A stretch of DNA of 15,020 bases from an uncultured Anaerolineaceae bacterium (GTDB taxonomy: Bacteria; Chloroflexota; Anaerolineae; Anaerolineales; Anaerolineaceae): contig CALAEB010000362.1 in assembly GCA_937890875.1 (NCBI GenBank), positions 1 through 15,020 of the forward strand. Direction: 5' to 3'. Of this stretch, positions 1 through 14,901 are shown piece by piece. The position numbers and the translations under genes were made by a program. The notes under the pieces were generated by a model. That model was not told the DNA's origin. It searched no databases and saw nothing but the letters and a program-made list of their open reading frames with translations. How positions within the stretch are numbered: the first letter of the stretch is position 1; every line of letters starts with the position of its first letter.

Positions 1-1215
1 GGGGACCTGGACCCCGGCAGGGCAGCCGAATTTGAAGCGCACCTGGCGGCGTGCGATGAATGCCTGGCCGCTTATGTGAAAATCGCCGCCGGGGAGGACA
101 TCCTGCCGGAGCGGGCCGCCGCCATTCGCGCGCCGCGACCCGCGACCCGTGCGATCCTGCACCGGCTGCGTTGGGCCGGACTGACCGCCGCTCTCGTGCT
201 GTTCTTCATCTTGGTCAGCGTCACGCCGCCCGGAAGAACGGCCTGGGCCAGTTTCATCCTGTCACTGGAGAAATTCGGCAACGCACTGAGCGAGACCTTC
301 CAGGTGGATGAAAAGAACAACGGAACGATTGAAACCGTCAACCAAACCGCGGTCGCGGCCAATGGCATTGAAATCAAGATCGACCAGGTATTTGTTGAAA
401 GCGACCAGATCTATATTTCCATGTTTATCGCGTCCGATCGCATCAAGGAAGATTATACGCTGCAGATGGGGCAACAAACCCTCTTCCTGAACGGAGAGGA
501 AACCAATTCATGGTACACCTGGAGAGGGCCTTCGCAGCGGCTCATTCCGGCCGGTATGCACGGGAACGAAACTCCGGTTCTGTCCCTGTTTCTGGTAGGA
601 ACCACAGAGAAGGACTACAGTCATGAGAAAAATCTTTCCATTCGGCTCAGCATCCCCAACTTGTTTGATTACAGTGCTTGGCATAATACAATCGTAGCAG
701 GCCCCTGGGAATTTGACTTCGTGGTGGATGCCACCCAATTAGAACAGCAGACCCGCACCATCGTGCTAAGCGACGTATTCCAGGAAAACGAGCGGATCTA
801 TCAAGTGACCGAACTGCGGATGTCGCCGGTGCGCACGCGCCTCACCGTTGACCGCCTGAATCCGGCACTGTTTTCCGAATGGGTCAATGAAGAGAGCGGC
901 GAAATAGACCGCTTCTATTCCAGCAGCACCAATCTGCAGGGGTTCGTCATCCGCGATGAGAACGGAAACGAAGCCGAACTCAGCCTGATGGAGATGGAGG
1001 ATTATGCCGGAACGAATGAAACGATCCGCTACTATTTCTTCTCGGAACTGGACAGCAATCCATACGAGTGGCTGAGGCAGGTGGACAGTTTGACCGTAAC
1101 GCCGTATGCCTCCAGCCTAAACTTCCGGAAATCGGACATTGAAGGCATCAAAAAGAACCGTGAATTGGAAAGTTTTACCATGCAGGGATTGATAGGAGAA
1201 AATAATGAAAAATAG
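1..1215 (+). CDS. Zinc-finger anti-sigma factor with DUF4179-like ectodomain (5'-partial)
   Basis: The frame is open from the first base, so the true start lies upstream; 404 residues are visible. Residues 14-21 (counting from base 1) form HxxxCxxC (His14, Cys18, Cys21), the end of the ZAS zinc finger with which such proteins bind an ECF sigma factor in the cytoplasm. One membrane helix follows at about residues 59-75, with arginines on its inner side. The remaining ~320 residues should be extracytoplasmic. They start with a segment like the DUF4179 domain of Firmicutes/Chloroflexota anti-sigma factors (GIEIKIDQVFVESDQIYIS near residues 122-140). By family knowledge it would hold a sigma factor until an envelope signal releases it; the sigma gene is presumably just upstream, outside the window. 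Its last codons overlap the next gene by 11 bases, suggesting translational coupling. The anti-sigma role is well supported; the signal is unknown. Confidence 0.85.
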   Translation, partial: GDLDPGRAAEFEAHLAACDECLAAYVKIAAGEDILPERAAAIRAPRPATRAILHRLRWAGLTAALVLFFILVSVTPPGRTAWASFILSLEKFGNALSETFQVDEKNNGTIETVNQTAVAANGIEIKIDQVFVESDQIYISMFIASDRIKEDYTLQMGQQTLFLNGEETNSWYTWRGPSQRLIPAGMHGNETPVLSLFLVGTTEKDYSHEKNLSIRLSIPNLFDYSAWHNTIVAGPWEFDFVVDATQLEQQTRTIVLSDVFQENERIYQVTELRMSPVRTRLTVDRLNPALFSEWVNEESGEIDRFYSSSTNLQGFVIRDENGNEAELSLMEMEDYAGTNETIRYYFFSELDSNPYEWLRQVDSLTVTPYASSLNFRKSDIEGIKKNRELESFTMQGLIGENNEK

Positions 1216-2263
1216 AATCAGATTTAGAACCGCACTTTTGTTAATGATTGCATCCATAGGCGTACTTCCTTCAACCGTATCGGCCGAGAGTAAAATAGAA
1301 GCTTTCCTGAAGGATTTTGAGGCGCTATACACTTGGGAGTATGAGATGAGCGTAGGCATGATCGACTCGGAGAATTCCTACAGCAAACCGGTGCGCATCC
1401 TGAAGACGACGGAAAGCGGCATAAGCGTGATGCTGGACCGGGCGCTGGTCACCGAAGATGAACTGGCGGTCTCGTTTCTGATTAGCGGCGACTTTCCTGA
1501 AAACCTCACAGATGTACAGCTTTATGCCGATATCAACGTTGGCCCGTTGCTGCCGTACCCGCCGGATTCTTTTGAGCTGGTTATCGGTGGAGGGGGAGGC
1601 GGTGGCCCCAAACTGTTGATATTGAATGAAAACCCATTAGTAGTACTGGACACGGCGTCGGTCCCGCTGATGTACGCTGATGGTTATGTCTCCCCGTCCG
1701 ATCCGATCCAGGTACGGGTCCGCGTCGCGGAAATCAGCATCGGTTGGGGAGAATCACAGGTAGACGGCAGTTCCCAGTATTATTACGAAGATGAACCGTT
1801 GGAATTCGAATTTGAAACAGACGGCGCGGAACTGGCAGCCCAAACGAAAACCTTCCAATTAGATCACACATTTGAAATCGATGGGCGCACTTACGAGTTT
1901 CACCGACTGCGTTTCAACCCGATGCAGCTCATCCTGTTCACCGGCGAAATGATATACGCAGGCGAAAAAAACGCACAAGGGACGGTCACAGCCTATTTCG
2001 ACGCGGTCAATTATGTGCAGGCGGATGCGGATGACGGCACGAAGATTTATCTGAGCAGCGTCGTCTCCCCCTACCGAGGATTCACAAAAAAAATTCTGGA
2101 CCCTGAGGCCATCCGCTCGCTCGAACAAACGAAAACAGTAACACTTACGCCTTGCTACTTGCATATGCTGACGGAAGAAAAACTCGGCGGCTATCCACTC
2201 ATCGGCGATCCGGCTTATGACTGCAGCCCGGAGCGCGCAGTCACAGTGACAATCCGGGAATAA
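1205..2263 (+). CDS. Secreted protein resembling the anti-sigma ectodomain, paralogue 1
   Basis: A 352-residue protein of unknown function. A signal peptide (basic start, hydrophobic residues 9-21, likely cut after Ala27 in VSA|ES) implies export. No later membrane helix or lipobox is seen. The mature part lines up by eye with the ectodomain encoded just upstream: SGISVMLDRALVTEDELAVS (residues 71-90) matches GIEIKIDQVFVESDQIYIS, and TKTFQLDHTFEIDGRTYEFH (214-233) and TVTLTPCY (311-318) also have counterparts there. Seven consecutive glycines at residues 128-134 form a flexible loop. Cys317 and Cys340 could form a disulfide outside the cell. The start at 1205 is fixed by AGGAG at 1194-1198, six bases upstream, and overlaps the anti-sigma stop. 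Functions as decoy, ligand binder or structural protein are all speculative. Confidence 0.9.
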   Translation: MKNRIRFRTALLLMIASIGVLPSTVSAESKIEAFLKDFEALYTWEYEMSVGMIDSENSYSKPVRILKTTESGISVMLDRALVTEDELAVSFLISGDFPENLTDVQLYADINVGPLLPYPPDSFELVIGGGGGGGPKLLILNENPLVVLDTASVPLMYADGYVSPSDPIQVRVRVAEISIGWGESQVDGSSQYYYEDEPLEFEFETDGAELAAQTKTFQLDHTFEIDGRTYEFHRLRFNPMQLILFTGEMIYAGEKNAQGTVTAYFDAVNYVQADADDGTKIYLSSVVSPYRGFTKKILDPEAIRSLEQTKTVTLTPCYLHMLTEEKLGGYPLIGDPAYDCSPERAVTVTIRE

Positions 2264-2285
2264 ACCGGGAGCGAAAGGAGAAAAA

Positions 2286-3338
2286 ATGAAACCTCAAACG
2301 ACTTTAGCCATTGCGGTTTTGCTGCTGCTCGCCGGGATAAATCTTTTTCCGGCAGCCGAAAGCGAACAGGAGAATTTTCTGAAAACCTTTGAGGCCGTAT
2401 ATCCCGCCGATATGGGCTGGGTAATCGACTCAACCAACCCCTACGCAAAGCCGGTGCGTATCCTGAAAACGACCGAAAGCGGCATCAGCGTGATGCTGGA
2501 CCGAGCCCTGGTCACAGAGACAGCCCTGGCGCTGTCATTTTTGATCAACGGCGACTTTCCACAGAATCTGACCAGTGTGGACCTGGTTACTGACATCGAC
2601 GCCGGGCCGCTGCTGCCCTACTCGCCGGATTCTTTTGAACCGGTGCTCCGCGCAAAAGGCGGAGGCGTATGGCCGACGCTGCGCCTTTTGAATGAAGATC
2701 CGCCAGTGGCGTTAGAGACAAGAACGGTTTTCTTAATGCGTTACGACGGGTATATCTCCCCATCAGACCCGATCCGGGTCCGCATTCGTATTCCACAAAT
2801 CAGCGTCTGCTGGGAGGATGCCACCGCGGACGGGGTCCCTCAGGAGCAGTGCTATTTCGAAGACGAACCGTTGGATTTCGATTTTGAAACCGACGGCGCG
2901 GACCTGGCAGCGCAAACGAAAACCTTCCAACTGGATCACACCTTTGAAATCGACGGGAAGCCCTACGAATTTCATCGTCTGCGGTTCAACCCGATGGAGC
3001 TCATCCTGTTCACCAGCCCGTCGGAGGAATGGGTAGAACATGAAGACGGCAGCAGTTCTCCAGCGGGGCTTCTCTATGTAGATGCGGTTACGGACGATGG
3101 AACCAACATTGAACTGTCGAGTCACAGCGGCGTTTACCCATACCATGGATTCACCCAAAAAATTCTTGATCCGGAGGTCATCCGCTCGCTGGAACAGACG
3201 AAAACGCTGACGCTGACGCCCTGTTACGTCCCCCGGCCACCGGACGAAGAGAATGATTCGTATTCAATGCCGGAACAGGGCAACCCGGCTTATGACTGCA
3301 GCCCCGAACGCGCGGTCACGGTGAACATCCGGGAATAG
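2286..3338 (+). CDS. Secreted protein resembling the anti-sigma ectodomain, paralogue 2
   Basis: A 350-residue exported protein closely related to the genes on both sides, sharing long identical stretches such as KPVRILKTTESGISVMLDRA and TKTFQLDHTFEIDG. The signal peptide covers residues 1-24 (likely cut FPAA|ES). The glycine loop is reduced to three glycines (125-127). Besides the conserved pair Cys313/Cys338 it has an extra pair, Cys175 and Cys189, absent from the two neighbours, which may make a second disulfide. AAGGAG at 2275-2280 lies five bases before the ATG, and 22 bases separate it from the preceding stop, so it is very likely cotranscribed. The function is not recognised; the similarity is to the extracytoplasmic half of the upstream anti-sigma factor, without the zinc finger or membrane anchor. 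Confidence 0.9.
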   Translation: MKPQTTLAIAVLLLLAGINLFPAAESEQENFLKTFEAVYPADMGWVIDSTNPYAKPVRILKTTESGISVMLDRALVTETALALSFLINGDFPQNLTSVDLVTDIDAGPLLPYSPDSFEPVLRAKGGGVWPTLRLLNEDPPVALETRTVFLMRYDGYISPSDPIRVRIRIPQISVCWEDATADGVPQEQCYFEDEPLDFDFETDGADLAAQTKTFQLDHTFEIDGKPYEFHRLRFNPMELILFTSPSEEWVEHEDGSSSPAGLLYVDAVTDDGTNIELSSHSGVYPYHGFTQKILDPEVIRSLEQTKTLTLTPCYVPRPPDEENDSYSMPEQGNPAYDCSPERAVTVNIRE

Positions 3339-3361
3339 TCATGATATAAAAGGAGAATTCA

Positions 3362-4399
3362 ATGAAAAATCGAACCGTTTGGATGATCGCGCTTGTGCTG
3401 ATGATCGCGGCGATAGCGCTCCCCGCTGCCGCGGCAGCCGAAAGCGACAGAGAAACTTTTTTGGAGAATTTCGAAGCGGTCTACCCGGCCAACATCGGCG
3501 GGGTGATCGACTCGGCCAACCCATACACAAAATCGGTGAGGATCGTGAAGACAACCCAAAGCGGCATCAGCGTGATGCTGGACAAAGTGTTGGTCACGGA
3601 GGATGAACTGGCGGTGTCGTTTCTCATCAGCGGCGACTTTCCGGAAAACCTCTTTGATGTTCATCTTTACACCGACATCAATGTCAGCCCATTGGTACCC
3701 TATCCGCCGGAATTATCGTTTGAGCCCCAGCGTGGCGGGGGCGGAGGCGATCCTGTGTATGTGCGCGTTGTGAACGAGAATCCGCTGGTCGCGTTGGATA
3801 CGGCAACGATCGCATTGATGTACGATGAGGGTTATGTCTCAGCAGCCGATCCTATCCGGGTGCACATCCGCATCCCGCAAATTGACATCGGCTGGGATTA
3901 TTCGGAAGAAGAAGGCAACGCACAGTATTACCATGAAGACGAAGTTCTGGAATTCGAATTTGAGACAGACGGCGCGGAATTAGCCGCGCAGACCAAAACC
4001 TTCGACCTGGACCATACCTTTGAAATCGACGGAAAAACTTACGAGTTTCACCGTCTTCATTTCAACCCGATGCAACTTATATTGTTCACCGGTGAAATGA
4101 GCTCCGGCTTTAGCTGGGAATATACAGAAGGTGTGCGCTATGTGATCGCGGCTACGGACGACGGGAATAAAATTAATCTGAATGCTGTCGAAGCCGCCGA
4201 TTGTCCTTATCGCGGATTCAGAGCCAAGATCCTTGATCCGGAAGTCATTCGCTCGCTTGAACGGACGAAAACGCTGACGCTGACACCCTGTTACCTGCCT
4301 GATCAGACAAACGAAGACCCGAATTCTTATCCGCTGTGGGAGAATCCGGCAATGGATTGCAGCCCGGAACGCGCAGTCACGGTGAACATCCAAGAATAA
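3362..4399 (+). CDS. Secreted protein resembling the anti-sigma ectodomain, paralogue 3
   Basis: A 345-residue exported protein, third of the tandem set. Its start (MKNR) resembles that of paralogue 1. The signal peptide ends around Ala26 (AAA|ES). It keeps the DUF4179-like block (SGISVMLDKVLVTEDELAVS, about 67-86), the TKTFDLDHTFEIDG block (211-224), and Cys310/Cys333, with one more cysteine at 281. Five glycines sit at 125-129, in the same place as the longer glycine loop of paralogue 1. AAGGAG at 3350-3355 is six bases before the ATG, and the gap from the previous stop is 23 bases. No clear intrinsic terminator with a T-tract follows; instead two T-less hairpins lie downstream. No biochemical function can be assigned. 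Confidence 0.9.
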   Translation: MKNRTVWMIALVLMIAAIALPAAAAAESDRETFLENFEAVYPANIGGVIDSANPYTKSVRIVKTTQSGISVMLDKVLVTEDELAVSFLISGDFPENLFDVHLYTDINVSPLVPYPPELSFEPQRGGGGGDPVYVRVVNENPLVALDTATIALMYDEGYVSAADPIRVHIRIPQIDIGWDYSEEEGNAQYYHEDEVLEFEFETDGAELAAQTKTFDLDHTFEIDGKTYEFHRLHFNPMQLILFTGEMSSGFSWEYTEGVRYVIAATDDGNKINLNAVEAADCPYRGFRAKILDPEVIRSLERTKTLTLTPCYLPDQTNEDPNSYPLWENPAMDCSPERAVTVNIQE

Positions 4400-4503: not shown

Positions 4504-4532
4504 GTAAGGGCAGCCACGAAGGCTGCCCTTAC
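4504..4532. repeat. Short palindromic repeat, copy 2
   Basis: A perfect 12-bp inverted repeat (4504-4515 with 4521-4532) around an ACGAA loop. It lacks a T-tract. Relative to copy 1, paired positions have changed together (C-G to A-T near the base, A-T to G-C within the stem), so pairing is preserved while sequence changes. Confidence 0.75.
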
Positions 4533-9142: not shown

Positions 9143-10114
9143 TTATCCGCCCAACTCCATATTCGACAGCAAGTTCGTGAAGAATTCACTCTGTTCCTCA
9201 ATAAAGACAGCGAAATCAGCCGTATTGCTGTAATGCACGATCATCCCGCGCTGGGTAATGAAATCGCTGAATTCTTTGGTCGCCGTCGCTTTTTCCAAAG
9301 CCGCGCTCAATTTTTCAAGAACTTCAGCCGGGGTTCCTTTCGGAACGCCTAACGCACCCCAACCGCCGATGATAACGTCAAAACCGCTTTCAACCATGGT
9401 CGGAACATCCGGCATGGCGGGATCGCGTTCCTCGGTCATGATCGCCAGAATCTTCAGTTTTCCAGCCTGCACACCGGAGAGAACTTCACCGGAATTGACG
9501 GTGACAGCGTCGATATGACCGCCCATCAAGGCCGTCACGGCCGGAGCTGCGCCGTCAAACATAATGTTGTTGAATTCAACACCGGCCTGTTCGCCCAAGA
9601 GCGTAGCGGCGATATGCCAAATTGAACCGGCGCCGGAATTTCCGATGGTCACTTCACCCGGATGTTCTTTGGCATAGTCAATGAAATCCTGAACTGTTTC
9701 ATAAGGCGCGTCCGCGGGAACCGTCAACGCAGCCGGAACAAGTGTCATCTGGCCGATATAATCAAAATCTTCGATAACGATGTCGGACAGCTCCAGTGTT
9801 TCATGCATCACGATTTCAACCGGAATATAAGAGATGGTGTAACCATCCGGTTTTGACGCGCGGACTTCGGACATACCCACGCCGCCCGAACCGCCGGGTT
9901 TGTTGACAACCAACACGGTCTGGCCCAGCTCTTCCTGTAAGCCGGTCGCGATAATTCTTGAAGTCATGTCTGAAGCGCCGCCTGCGTTGAACGGAACGAC
10001 AATGGTAATTTCATGTTCCGGGAATTCGGCTGAAACGCTGCTGAACCCTGCGAACACCAAGGCTGTAATGACAACAGCCATGAACAAAACGTACGATTTT
10101 CTTACTTTTTCCAT
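9143..10114 (-). CDS. tctC: Tripartite tricarboxylate transporter substrate-binding protein (TctC/Bug family)
   Basis: A 323-residue extracytoplasmic binding protein that delivers a carboxylate-type ligand to the TctAB membrane complex. Residues ~8-29 form a signal peptide (likely cut VSA|EF). Family motifs seen are VPFNAGGASDMTSR, NKPGGSGGVGM and GNSGAGSIWHIAA, with a C-terminal domain containing GWGALGVPKGTP. A longer frame begins at 10231, but the start at 10114 is chosen because GGAGG lies directly upstream at proper distance, the signal peptide begins here, and the extra 39 residues have no family character. It is the last gene of the operon and is set apart from tctA by 211 bases that include a 19-bp hairpin. 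It lacks a lipobox cysteine; Phe24 sits where one might be. Ligand unknown. Confidence 0.95.
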   Translation of the reverse strand: MEKVRKSYVLFMAVVITALVFAGFSSVSAEFPEHEITIVVPFNAGGASDMTSRIIATGLQEELGQTVLVVNKPGGSGGVGMSEVRASKPDGYTISYIPVEIVMHETLELSDIVIEDFDYIGQMTLVPAALTVPADAPYETVQDFIDYAKEHPGEVTIGNSGAGSIWHIAATLLGEQAGVEFNNIMFDGAAPAVTALMGGHIDAVTVNSGEVLSGVQAGKLKILAIMTEERDPAMPDVPTMVESGFDVIIGGWGALGVPKGTPAEVLEKLSAALEKATATKEFSDFITQRGMIVHYSNTADFAVFIEEQSEFFTNLLSNMELGG

Positions 10115-10251
10115 CAGATCCTCCAAAATATTTATAAGAAACTTATTACCATCTTTTACAACTGAAACATCACGGTTAATTGCTGCCTTGATGCCTCCTC
10201 TCTGGAAATTCAGGCTTGCCTGAAAAACCAACGATTCGAAATATTCCGGTC

Positions 10252-10297
10252 AGTATTGAACCAAAGCGACCAATTTGCGTCGCTTTGGTTCAATACT
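10252..10297 (-). repeat. 19-bp perfect inverted repeat between tctA and tctC
   Basis: The arms 10252-10270 and 10279-10297 are exactly complementary, with an 8-base loop. It starts 28 bases past the tctA stop. No T-tract follows on the minus strand, so it is more likely an mRNA 3'-end protecting or processing stem, or a leaky attenuator, than an intrinsic terminator. Confidence 0.85.
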
Positions 10298-10325
10298 CAA
10301 ACCGCCGCCCGCCGGCAGTGAATGA

Positions 10326-11831
10326 TCAGCCGTCACTATCATTCAGGAAGTCGGTTTTTTTATTTCTAAATTCCGCGTACAGACTCAGCACCAGAATCAG
10401 CACTGCCGCAATCAAAAAGCCGAGCGCGATCGGACTGGAATACAAACCGGAAAAGCCCTTATTAATTTTGAGCGACTGCAAAAGCGAACGCTCAATCATC
10501 TCGCTCAGCACATACACCAAGACGATCGGAGCCATCGGAATTTCCAGTTTTTTGAGCACGTAACCGATAATACCGAAGACCAGCATTACGCCGATTTCAA
10601 ACAAGCTGTTGCTGACCGTATAAGCGCCGAGCATCGCGATGATCAGAACCACCGGGTAAAGCAGTTTATTCGGGATGTTCGCCACCTTGGCCCATGCGCC
10701 GGCCAGCGGCCAGTTCATGATCAGCAGGATCACGTTCCCGATAAACATGCTGGCGATCGTCCCCCAGACAACGATCGGACTTTCAATGAACAGCGTCGGC
10801 CCGGGGGTCAGCCCATGCATCATGAAAGCTCCCATCAAAATCGCGATCGTCGGCGAGCATGGAATACCCAGCGTAAACAACGGGATCATCGCGCCGCCGA
10901 CATAGGAATTGTTGGCGGTTTCCGGCCCCGCGACGCCTTCCACGGCCCCTTTGCCAAACTTTTCGGGATGCTTGGAAAGCCGTTTCTCCATTGAATAAGA
11001 GATCAGTGCGGGAATGGCCGAGCTGGTTCCCGGAATCAGGCCCATGAAGAAACCCAGAAAACTGCCGCGAATGATGGACATCACCGTCGGACGCATCTCG
11101 CCCTTCTCCAACCTGGACGAATTCACACTGCTGGTTTTATTATGGATGTACAGATTTTCCATCCCAACCAGGATTTCCGATAACCCGAAAAGCCCCATAC
11201 AGATCGTCACCAGATCCAGACCGGAAACCAACTGGTTCACACCGAAAGCATAGCGGATCCTGCCAGAAACCGGATCCATTCCCACCAGCGCGAGCAATAA
11301 TCCGATAAATACGGCCACCAGTCCGCGCACCAGCGATTTGCCCATCAAGCCAACCACCATGGACATACCGAAAACCAGGAGCGCAAACATCTCCGTCGGG
11401 CCGAACCGGAGCGCAAATTCGGCGAGCGGCGGCGCGATCAACGCCAGCCCGATGATGGAAATCAGCCCGCCGACAAACGAACCGACTGCCGCCACTTTCA
11501 GCGCGACACCCGCCCGGCCTTGCTTGGCCAGCGGATATCCATCCAGACAGGTGATGACCGAAGCCGCTTCACCCGGCGTATTAATCAACACGGACGTAAT
11601 TGTTCCGCCGTACATCCCGCCATAGTAAATTCCGGCCAGCATAATAATCGCGGAGACCGGCTCCATACCAAAGGTTAAAGGGATCAAAAGAGCGGTGGCC
11701 TCTGTCGGTCCGATACCGGGCAGAACGCCGACCAGCATCCCCACGAAACAGCCGATGAAACAATAAAGGATGTTCATCGGGGAAATTGCGACCGAAAAAC
11801 CTTCCATTAAACTCATTACGGATTCAAGCAT
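10326..11831 (-). CDS. tctA: Tripartite tricarboxylate transporter large membrane subunit TctA
   Basis: A 501-residue, very hydrophobic protein with about a dozen membrane helices. It is the main permease of the TTT transporter, which uses an ion gradient to import a ligand handed over by TctC. The family signature is clear near the N-terminus: [20 protein letters not shown] (residues ~35-54) followed by [23 protein letters not shown] second inverted-repeat-like block, [16 protein letters not shown], comes mid-protein, as is usual for this two-repeat family. AAGGAG lies eight bases before the ATG, inside the 11-base gap after tctB, showing tight coupling to that gene. Length matches the family norm of about 500. 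Identification is secure; substrate cannot be read from it. Confidence 0.97.
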
Positions 11832-11842
11832 TTGCCAACTCC

Positions 11843-12331
11843 TTAAAATCCCCAGGGGTTAACCGGCAACGGCACTGAAAACCCTTTTTTGAATATCAGA
11901 AAACAAATCACAGTGACGACAATTGCAAGCAGAATGGACTGCCACCAGTTATATTGCCGGATGAAGATCGAAAACAACAGCAAACTGGACGCAATTACAA
12001 AACCGGTGGTATTTGCAATCAGAATGAAAACCGCAATCCCGATAACCACCAGCGCGACGCTTTTCAGAGCCTGCTTATCGGGAAACGTTTCGCCGAATAT
12101 GAACTTATCCTTGGTCACCGACGAGATCAGGTAAAAAACACCGACAAGGATTGCCAGAATTGAGACCCATCTGGGGAAGAACCCCGGGCCGATTCCGAAT
12201 TTCGTGGAATAAGGATAATCAAAAGATACAATAAGGAAAAAAATCGAAAACAGAATAAACAAAATACTGAAAAATAATCCGGCATTTTGTTTTTTTAACC
12301 ATGAAGTGAAACGATTTCCAAATCCTGACAT
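11843..12331 (-). CDS. tctB: Tripartite tricarboxylate transporter small membrane subunit TctB
   Basis: A 162-residue protein with four predicted membrane helices (from about residue 18 onward), matching TctB in size, topology and position. The motif KFGIGPGFFPRWVSILAI is typical: TctB proteins carry a GPGFFP-like block after helix 1. It is the small partner of TctA in the permease complex. The frame permits an ATG at 12340, but AAAGG directly abuts that codon. The next ATG, three codons on at 12331, has the ribosome binding site nine bases away and is taken as the start. It is 57 bases after the aldolase gene and 11 before tctA, so the genes form one transcription unit. TctB is poorly conserved in general; context raises confidence. 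Confidence 0.92.
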   Translation of the reverse strand: MSGFGNRFTSWLKKQNAGLFFSILFILFSIFFLIVSFDYPYSTKFGIGPGFFPRWVSILAILVGVFYLISSVTKDKFIFGETFPDKQALKSVALVVIGIAVFILIANTTGFVIASSLLLFSIFIRQYNWWQSILLAIVVTVICFLIFKKGFSVPLPVNPWGF

Positions 12332-12388
12332 TCCGTTCATCCTTTCTGTTATGGTTTTTTTTCAACAAGCAGATCGGAAAGGATCCGA

Positions 12389-13285
12389 TCAATTTGTCAA
12401 CAACAATAATTCTTCGAATTGCTTCTTCGCAGATTCTAATTGTTCCGGGGTAAGATCCAGTAACGGTTTCCGCATATGGCCGCCGGGGATGCCGCGCAGT
12501 GTCAGAATGCTTTTGAAAACAGCCATGTCACGGCCGTATTCCAGAAACTCGACATGCTTCGTCGCGGTCAGCTGGATTTTTCGCGCATCATCATAGCGTT
12601 TCTCTGTGAAGCAGCGGTAAACCTCGACAAAAGCCTCCGGCATCGGGCCGGAACAGCCGGACACCACCCCGTCGCATCCGGCCGCCAAAGCGGGGAAAAA
12701 CAGGTCATCCGCGCCAACAACGACCGAGAAACTCCCATCGCGGACCGTCAGGTATTGGCACGCTCTGCGAACATCCGGATAACTGTATTTGACGCCAACA
12801 ATCTGAGGACAGGCTTCGGCGATCCGGTTCATCAGCTGGAAGGAAATGTCATTCTTTGCCAGCTGGGGGATCACATAAACATAAACCGGGAAATCGCTCG
12901 GCAGCGCGGCACAGATATCAACATAATACTGCAGAATCGTCCGGTCATCCGCACCGAAATACGCGGGGGTCACAACACCGATACCATCCGCACCGATCGC
13001 GTGTGCGTGTTGGCTCAGCCGGATTGTATCTTTCAGGTTCATCGCACCCGTATGGACGTAAACGGTCACCCTGCCGGCCGCCCTGCGAACAACAGTCTCG
13101 GCAATCTTTTCACGCTCTTCACCAGACATTAAAAACATCTCACCGGTCGTTCCATTCGGGTACAGGCATTGAACGCCTTTTCCGATCAAAAAATCGGTCT
13201 GCTGCTCCAGCGCAGAAAGATCCACCTGATCTTCTTCGGTAAAAGGGGTCGTCATTGCCGTAATAACGCCATACAGTTTTTTCAT
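12389..13285 (-). CDS. DHDPS/N-acetylneuraminate-lyase superfamily aldolase
   Basis: A 298-residue TIM-barrel class I aldolase of the DapA/NanA family. Visible hallmarks are GTTGE at residues 45-49 (carboxylate-binding loop), the Schiff-base lysine Lys166 in VGVKYS, and Tyr137 in YVIP, matching the catalytic tyrosine of the YNVP motif. The segment after this tyrosine (QLAKND, 141-146) lacks the arginine that DapA uses to hold aspartate semialdehyde (in SRTG), so a lysine-biosynthesis role is unlikely. It probably cleaves or forms a 2-oxo acid, such as a 2-keto-3-deoxy sugar acid or another pyruvate-derived compound. It is the first gene of the operon before tctB, tctA and tctC, with GAGGAT just before the ATG. 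This suggests it metabolises the imported compound. Superfamily is certain; substrate is unknown. Confidence 0.93.
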   Translation of the reverse strand: MKKLYGVITAMTTPFTEEDQVDLSALEQQTDFLIGKGVQCLYPNGTTGEMFLMSGEEREKIAETVVRRAAGRVTVYVHTGAMNLKDTIRLSQHAHAIGADGIGVVTPAYFGADDRTILQYYVDICAALPSDFPVYVYVIPQLAKNDISFQLMNRIAEACPQIVGVKYSYPDVRRACQYLTVRDGSFSVVVGADDLFFPALAAGCDGVVSGCSGPMPEAFVEVYRCFTEKRYDDARKIQLTATKHVEFLEYGRDMAVFKSILTLRGIPGGHMRKPLLDLTPEQLESAKKQFEELLLLTN

Positions 13286-14009: not shown

Positions 14010-14102
14010 ATGATAAATTTAGACCGGAAAAAAATGAGAAAGCTGATTAAGATTAATCGACGTAAAAGAATAATAACCAAACGAGGTTCTACCGATGCAT
14101 GA
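14010..14102 (+). CDS. Possible 30-residue basic leader peptide
   Basis: A small frame starts with ATG at 14010, just after AGGAAGG (14003-14009), and stops at 14100-14102. It overlaps the start of the IclR gene by eight bases (ATGCATGA). The peptide is strikingly basic, with lysine and arginine making up about 40 percent of residues. The Shine-Dalgarno is very close to the ATG, which weakens the case. If translated, it would couple to the regulator gene. No known leader-peptide family is recognised. Confidence 0.3.
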   Translation: MINLDRKKMRKLIKINRRKRIITKRGSTDA

Positions 14103-14901
14103 CTCAAGTTCTTCCGAGACAGGACATGCTGTTAATTCCGTGGTAAAAGCGATGCAGATCCTGAATTGCTTTACTCCCAGCGTCCCTATGCTCAGTTTAG
14201 CGCAAATCAGCAAGCAGCTGGACATCCCCAAAAGCACCGCGTTGAATTTAATCAAAACGCTGGAATCCGGGGGGCTGATTTTGCGCGTCAAGGACAGCAG
14301 CTCCTACCAGTTGGGATACAAAAATATGGAGTTGGGCTACCGGACCCTGATGGGACTGTCCATTTTGCCTTACGCGATTCCAATTATGGAAGAAATACAG
14401 GAAAAAACCGGAGAAATCATCTATTTGACCTCTCACCTCAACGGTCTGGTTTTCTATCTGCAATGCATTTATCCCAGCCGCCCCAAGGTCAGCTATTCCG
14501 TGATGGGGAAAACGCTGCCGATGCACTGCACCGGGTGCGGCAAAGCAATGCTGACTTACCTGGAACGTTCTTATATTGATAAAATTATCGAAAAATACGG
14601 ACTTTCCATGGTCACGCCGCACACCATCACAGACCCGGACCGGCTTTTCAAAGAGCTGGAAATCAATCAGCGGCGGGGTTATGCCATTGACAACGAAGAG
14701 GAAACGCTTGGCGTTAAATGCGTCGGCGTTGCGGTCCGGAATACAAAAGGGATTGCGGTCGGCGCATTAAGCCTCTCCGGTTCGGTAATCACCCTGACGC
14801 CTGATAAATATGACGCATATGCCGACCTGCTGTCCAAATCCTGTATTCTTTTGTCTCAGCAGGCAAATCTGTTCCCCGCCAGCCAGATGAATCAGGCCTG
14901 A
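14095..14901 (+). CDS. IclR-family transcriptional regulator
   Basis: A 268-residue regulator. The N-terminal winged helix-turn-helix (residues ~12-75) has LAQISKQLDIPKSTALNLIKTLESGG as recognition region followed by the wing and YQLGYKNMELG. The C-terminal effector-binding domain (about 85-255) shows the family blocks LPMHCTGCGKAML (141-153) and RRGYAIDNEEETLGVKCVGVAV (193-214). IclR proteins typically control catabolic operons for aromatic, sugar or carboxylic acids, binding the substrate or an intermediate. Transcribed away from the aldolase-tct operon, it is the probable regulator of that unit; this is inference from position. GAGG at 14083-14086 is eight bases before the ATG. Length is normal for the family. 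Confidence 0.95.
   Translation: MHDSSSSETGHAVNSVVKAMQILNCFTPSVPMLSLAQISKQLDIPKSTALNLIKTLESGGLILRVKDSSSYQLGYKNMELGYRTLMGLSILPYAIPIMEEIQEKTGEIIYLTSHLNGLVFYLQCIYPSRPKVSYSVMGKTLPMHCTGCGKAMLTYLERSYIDKIIEKYGLSMVTPHTITDPDRLFKELEINQRRGYAIDNEEETLGVKCVGVAVRNTKGIAVGALSLSGSVITLTPDKYDAYADLLSKSCILLSQQANLFPASQMNQA

What the first reader, a model, noticed from the sequence alone, without database searches (positions are those of the whole stretch)
1..4399. Anti-sigma factor followed by three secreted copies of its own ectodomain
Three tandem exported proteins share blocks in the same order with the extracytoplasmic half of the adjacent membrane anti-sigma factor, but lack its zinc finger and membrane helix. 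The sequence shows tandem position, overlapping or short spacing, signal peptides and shared motifs. Inference: they arose by duplication of the sensor domain and may act as soluble decoys, ligand scavengers or co-sensors that tune the release of the sigma factor. I know of no described system with this layout, though I cannot search for one.
Basis: partly seen in the sequence, partly recalled or inferred. Interest (0 to 1): 0.7.

Follow-up and report, generated by a model that had tools for sequence, protein, structure and literature searches.

The report
Anti-sigma sensor with secreted sensor copies
A gene-switch protein that senses something outside the cell is followed by three genes for free-floating relatives of its own sensor part, and the switch seems to turn on mainly this set of genes, so the cell may answer a signal by releasing extra copies of the sensor.

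The parts
1..1215 (+). A: membrane anti-sigma factor, 404 aa seen; 13 N-terminal residues lie off the contig by alignment with P0035
   Evidence: zf-HC2, DUF4179, DUF5643; homologue P0035, 420 aa, 69% identical
1..63 (+). remnant of the zinc-binding anti-sigma domain (H14, C18, C21)
   Evidence: zf-HC2 match to residues 1-21; these residues invariant in the 10 rows of A2
163..222 (+). transmembrane helix, residues 55-74
   Evidence: model helix H55-74; hydropathy peak 56-74
241..249 (+). A-W-A, a signal-peptidase-like motif just outside the membrane span
   Evidence: [AV]-[WL]-A here in 10 of 10 A proteins examined; cleavage itself not tested
226..300 (+). helices after the membrane span (residues 76-91 and 95-100), the first holding the A-W-A motif; candidate guard of the cut
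   Evidence: model helices; two helices at this place in 3FBQ and in RsiV's DUF4179 per PMC6066255
271..1191 (+). sensor ectodomain, mostly beta strands, its later part being DUF5643 (residues 254-379)
1205..2263 (+). S1: exported ectodomain paralogue, 352 aa
1205..1285 (+). S1 signal peptide, residues 1-27, ending V-S-A
   Evidence: hydropathy and motif; residues 10 on aligned with A's membrane helix
2286..3338 (+). S2: exported ectodomain paralogue, 350 aa
   Evidence: A-only profile E 6e-14; 70% identical to the third S on G007 C174
3362..4399 (+). S3: exported ectodomain paralogue, 345 aa
   Evidence: A-only profile E 2e-16; 63-64% identical to S1
4504..4532 (+). perfect 12-nt inverted repeat with 5-nt loop between S3 and the elongation factor P gene, possible end of the operon (not scored as a terminator, no T run)

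Best explanation
[quoted passage not shown] Shown by sequence and models: homology over the whole ectodomain, shared fold, loss of the zinc finger, recurrence behind the anti-sigma gene, one origin of S on the tree, low dN/dS, and a common promoter-like motif before the sigma genes. Inferred: (1) an outside agent binds the ectodomain of A and exposes a signal-peptidase-type cut just outside the membrane, as in RsiV; (2) the freed sigma transcribes mainly its own operon; (3) the S proteins, whose former membrane helix is now a cleavable signal peptide, leave the cell and bind the same or related agents; (4) this neutralises the agent and damps the signal: a sense-and-scavenge loop.
For: Homology and fold. 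Recurrence: S directly behind A in 6 of the 8 A loci found in the genus. Coupling: A-S spacing from -11 to +12 nt in 6 of 6 loci. Promoter: 11-13 of 13 motif positions upstream of 8 of 8 sigma genes, reached by 0 to 5 of 300 shuffles each; at <=1 mismatch the longer pattern occurs once in complete G003, three times in G007, twice in G008 and once in G000, each time before one of these sigma genes. Amplification: 3 S here, 4 on one G007 contig. Selection: NG86 dN/dS 0.15-0.25 in seven S pairs. Precedent: the RsiV ectodomain is released by cutting and inhibits lysozyme at 1:1, and sigma-V raises its own anti-sigma (PMC5014341, passages).
Against: S is only about 16-22% identical to A, so a shared ligand is not assured. 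No ligand, binding, export or expression data. S is old and co-inherited with A, which fits a partner of A as well. Two distant operons (G001 C6, G008 C97) have a single S, so excess of S is not general. The regulon test sees only sites near one consensus; G001 has three other one-mismatch sites, all inside long ORFs, and its own sigma promoter has a spacer one longer and was missed. G007 C300 has the promoter and no S. RsiV's own sensor domain is unrelated to this fold.
Confidence: 0.37

Rival explanations
1. Partner or co-sensor: S binds the ectodomain of A and, as a subunit of the sensor, holds or exposes the cleavage site; the ligand acts on the A-S complex.
For: A-S spacing -11 to +12 nt in 6 of 6 loci; A and S fall into matching genome groups on the tree; two distant operons have exactly one S per A; G003 encodes three exported proteins that fuse an A-type ectodomain, nearest to its own A, to an S domain, a kind of fusion often seen for interacting pairs.
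Against: 3 or 4 S per A in two genomes is odd for a fixed complex; the fusion also fits a bivalent trap; no interface was modelled.
Confidence: 0.33
2. Diverged effectors: S kept the fold but now does another envelope task (binding wall or surface material, for instance), and A merely controls its supply.
For: 16-22% identity to A; S-only features: a Gly-rich loop and a C-terminal cysteine pair invariant in 32 of 32 rows that the window's A lacks.
Against: The whole ectodomain fold, including the segment next to the membrane, is kept; no enzyme or wall-binding family was hit in Pfam or NCBIfam.
Confidence: 0.2
3. S is itself the cue: A senses the amount or folding state of exported S, so the operon keeps its own product level.
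For: Promoter-like motif almost confined to these operons; a shared fold could allow A-S contact.
Against: G007 C300 has sigma-A with the motif but no S; three Bacillota plasmid relatives also lack S nearby.
Confidence: 0.07

Closest known systems
3FBQ: crystal structure of the extracellular domain of anti-sigma BAS1627 (DUF4179), Bacillus anthracis
   Different: 14% and 10% identity; a membrane anti-sigma of unstudied function (PMC6066255); whether it has soluble copies was not examined here
RsiV/sigma-V of Bacillus subtilis (ECF30)
   Same: Anti-sigma with DUF4179; signal-peptidase site within helices next to the membrane; autoregulated; the released ectodomain binds and inhibits the inducer (PMC5014341, PMC6066255, passages)
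   Different: RsiV's sensor domain is unrelated to this fold; no separate soluble copies in the passages I read; its operon also carries oatA
Bacillota sigma-DUF4179 gene pairs on Paraclostridium and Sarcina plasmids
   Same: Same order, sigma then anti-sigma; matched by the A-only profile at E 1e-14 to 6e-10
   Different: No second homologue (frames of 80 codons or more, E<=0.01) within about 6 kb in 3 of 3 records
Soluble decoy receptors of animals (recalled)
   Same: Ligand-binding half of a receptor made as a free protein that limits signalling
   Different: Analogy only; nothing here shows ligand binding

Membership tests
ECF anti-sigma factor with DUF4179/DUF5643 (for A) | Cytoplasmic zinc-binding anti-sigma domain | tested here: met
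   zf-HC2 E 5.8e-5 in the cut window copy and 1.3e-6 in the intact G007 copy, both over the cut-off
ECF anti-sigma factor with DUF4179/DUF5643 (for A) | One membrane span followed by DUF4179 and DUF5643 | tested here: met
   DUF4179 2.3e-6 and DUF5643 2.4e-4, both under Pfam's cut-offs; helix 55-74; fold match to 3FBQ
ECF anti-sigma factor with DUF4179/DUF5643 (for A) | Adjacent ECF sigma gene | tested here: met
   By relatives: sigma overlaps A by 11 nt in 5 of 5 loci measured, and 5 of 5 sigma proteins tested pass TIGR02937. In the own genome the sigma start is on another contig, C195, so adjacency there is inferred
ECF anti-sigma factor with DUF4179/DUF5643 (for S1-S3) | Zinc-binding domain and membrane anchor | tested here: not met
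   No zf-HC2 match; only an N-terminal hydrophobic stretch: S1-S3 are not filed as anti-sigma factors
Anti-sigma ectodomain fold (for S1-S3) | Sequence profile and fold of the A ectodomain over its whole length | tested here: met
   structure predicted for S1 only
RsiV-like regulated cleavage by signal peptidase | Cleavage motif next to the membrane with guarding helices | tested here: inconclusive
   Motif in 10 of 10 A proteins and helices in the model; cleavage not testable here
RsiV-like ligand-inhibiting released ectodomain | Released ectodomain binds and inhibits the inducer | not testable with these tools
   Ligand unknown
Autoregulated ECF operon | Sigma-specific promoter upstream of the sigma gene | tested here: inconclusive
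   Shared motif at 8 of 8 sigma genes, partly circular because read from seven of them; no expression data

The most novel reading that the evidence does not exclude
A closed ECF circuit whose main output is soluble copies of its own sensor: activation fills the outside with sensor-fold proteins that capture the inducer and end the response, with tandem expansion and ectodomain-S fusion as ways to tune the trap.
Probability: 0.28. Interest if true: 0.75.

Novelty: new variant of a known kind. Interest (0 to 1): 0.55.

Why it matters
The ligands of most anti-sigma ectodomains are unknown (general knowledge); DUF4179 was in 4 and DUF5643 in 0 papers of the 5.39 million searched. A natural soluble version, made with the sensor and probably easy to purify, is a direct handle for finding the ligand. 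If S damps the signal, it would be an extracellular negative feedback in sigma-factor control built from copies of the receptor, a design that I found described for no sigma system in the searches named.

Tried and rejected
Recent duplication of this A: rejected, S forms its own group (94/93). Chance motif sharing: rejected. General Bacillota layout: not seen in the three plasmid records opened, two of them one species; Bacillota chromosomes could not be surveyed, so the layout may exist there. Plasmid searches: P0035 no match at E<=0.01; a distant A at E up to 10 gave four records, of which I opened the three annotated DUF4179 (E 0.3, 4, 7), so their kinship rests on the later profile match. 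Phylum survey with DUF5643: 18 of 400 genomes at E<=0.01, one over the cut-off, none of 14 control genomes; in the genus run at E<=1 six of 14 control genomes also rang, so weak DUF5643 hits mean little. I looked at the ORFs of 13 of these loci, some with a sigma gene beside the hit; in 17 loci (L108-L124) the A and S profiles gave one weak hit (L111, E 0.001), so they are too distant to say much about the layout.

G007 C257: the exported protein behind A, cut by the contig end, is not significantly like A or S (E 0.29 and 0.22), so I do not count it as S, although an early alignment had included it. PDB sequence searches with A and with the A and S profiles gave nothing with E under 0.1. Viral contigs gave no relative. 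The third protein search, with the A profile, gave no new members. Genome contigs gave 3 loci. In the class survey 4 of 396 genomes matched; the two outside the genus match only the zinc-finger end. Pfam and NCBIfam names gave no function for S.

Rows dropped before counts: A1 used 32 of 34 hits, without P0026 and P0033. The tree used 39 rows: the genome rows, P0036, and 11 of the 34 hits (P0026 as two halves); the contig-cut C257 and C121 proteins and the C544 orphan were left out.

Full report
What is there. The window is the start of contig C362 of a 3.06 Mb, 665-contig genome, 80.75% complete. One carrier of the system, G003, has a single contig of 2,945,494 bases, the length listed for the S protein P0019 of Anaerolineaceae bacterium oral taxon 439 (Chloroflexota); two other carriers are recorded as uncultured Anaerolineaceae and Chloroflexi. 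A (1-1215) is a cut anti-sigma factor; S1-S3 (1205-4399) follow with an 11-nt overlap and gaps of 22 and 23 nt. A perfect 12-nt inverted repeat lies behind S3, then elongation factor P and an FtsH-type protease.

How the copies were made. hhalign pairs the S signal peptide with the A membrane helix, and weak DUF4179 matches begin inside the signal peptide in one distant S (residues 14-86, E 0.004) and one fusion (3-84, E 0.008). In 10 of 10 A proteins an [AV]-[WL]-A motif sits just outside the membrane helix, near where S has its signal-peptide end. RsiV is cut by signal peptidase within DUF4179, guarded by amphipathic helices (PMC6066255, section 16 and passages). Inference: S is a sensor permanently in the cut form.

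Distribution. With the S protein as query 5 of 61 relatives match; in the family search 5 of 147 genomes, all in this genus, of which 14 genomes are held; in the class 4 of 396, two of them only at the zinc-finger end. I found 8 A genes in 5 genomes: G000 C362; G003; G001 C6; G008 C43 and C97; G007 C174, C257, C300. S stands directly behind A in 6 of 8; C257 has an exported protein of no significant similarity, C300 no S. S number varies: three here, four on G007 C174 with one whole and one partial on C121, one in G001 C6 and G008 C97, one in G008 C43 before the contig ends, one plus three fusions in G003. Six S hits list a longest contig of 342,131 bases, as does an A (P0035), which suggests six copies in one locus; I did not see that contig.

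Tree. With 39 rows, all 26 S rows fall on one side of a branch (94/93; 96% of bootstrap trees), including the S of two distant operons; but that branch is just under the tool's starred level, and the two distant S rows are long branches that meet, so their place is unsure. A and S show matching genome groups. In G003 three exported proteins of 652-661 aa consist of an A-type ectodomain and an S domain; their A-type halves group with that genome's own A (100/100). So sensor copies were probably made at least twice. NG86 dN/dS is 0.15-0.25 for seven S pairs and 0.31 for one A pair; dS is above 1 in six of the seven S pairs, so these are rough.

Promoter. Reading the sequence upstream of seven sigma genes I saw a common TTTGA[AC]GTA, 17 nt, GTCT; an eighth site came from the pattern search. 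Scored afterwards, all eight have 11-13 of 13 positions; the site begins 34-105 nt before my chosen sigma start (for G000 the printed 49 is to the end of the stretch used; the sigma frame starts 34 nt after the site begins). Base shuffles reached the value in 0 to 5 of 300. The G001 site has an 18-nt spacer and the lowest score, with 5 of 300. The consensus was read from seven of these sites, so the scores are partly circular; the independent part is the genome search. Strict pattern: 10 hits in 14 genomes, 6 of them at these operons, against 17 for the reversed control. Longer pattern in the five carrier genomes at <=1 mismatch: G003 1 site, G007 3, G008 2, G000 1, each before one of these sigma genes; G001 3, none before its sigma gene and all inside long ORFs. 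Hits up to 2 mismatches number 44 against 80 for the control, so there is no surplus beyond the operons. The G000 site lies at the end of contig C195, followed by a sigma start resembling that of G007; this is very likely the promoter of the window's operon, but the two contigs were not shown to be neighbours.

Mechanism. Shown: homology, fold, recurrence, common promoter-like motif. Inferred: autoregulation, export and release, ligand capture, feedback. The scavenger reading rests on the near-private motif, the amplification of S in some genomes and the RsiV precedent, where the ectodomain inhibits lysozyme at 1:1 and is released on cutting (PMC5014341, passages). The partner reading rests on co-inheritance, tight A-S spacing, single-S operons and the fusions. 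I put 0.37 on the first, 0.33 on the second; the difference is small.

Novelty. Library searches for DUF4179 (4 papers), DUF5643 (0), anti-sigma with decoy and ECF (9), RsiV with lysozyme inhibition (3), a six-term search (0), ECF30 (6), 3FBQ (1) and anti-sigma with soluble decoy (0) listed no paper whose title or opening lines describe such a layout; I read passages of PMC6066255, PMC8844934 and PMC5014341, none whole. Most subscription papers are not in that library. The parts are known kinds; the combination is new to me, hence new variant of a known kind.

Noticed in passing
L025:5412-11470 (G003): Three exported 652-661 aa proteins fuse an anti-sigma-type ectodomain to an S domain; P0026 (600 aa) is similar.
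   Followed up: partly
window 1565-1615 (S1 residues 121-137) and relatives: S has a conserved Gly-rich loop of low model confidence, and a C-terminal cysteine pair (C317, C340 in S1) invariant in 32 of 32 rows of A1; the distant G001 and G008 C97 S proteins lack that pair.
   Followed up: no
L073:4245-5306 (G007 C544): An orphan frame that matches the A profile (E 3e-28) better than the S profile, without sigma or anti-sigma beside it; perhaps a free A-type ectodomain.
   Followed up: no
L028:6215-7018 and L074:859-2202 (G007): Exported proteins, one behind a sigma-anti-sigma pair and one apart, not significantly (E 0.2-0.3) or weakly (E 2e-4) like S; possibly very diverged members.
   Followed up: partly
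L072:2883-4701 (G007 C300): Sigma-anti-sigma operon with the same promoter motif but no S gene: a natural control.
   Followed up: partly
L023 (G007 C121): An S gene lies near elongation factor P as in the window, with a metallophosphoesterase-like frame between them (name by eye).
   Followed up: no
window 9143-13285: Minus-strand TctC, TctA and TctB genes next to a dihydrodipicolinate-synthase-family gene, with an IclR regulator at 14095-14901.
   Followed up: no
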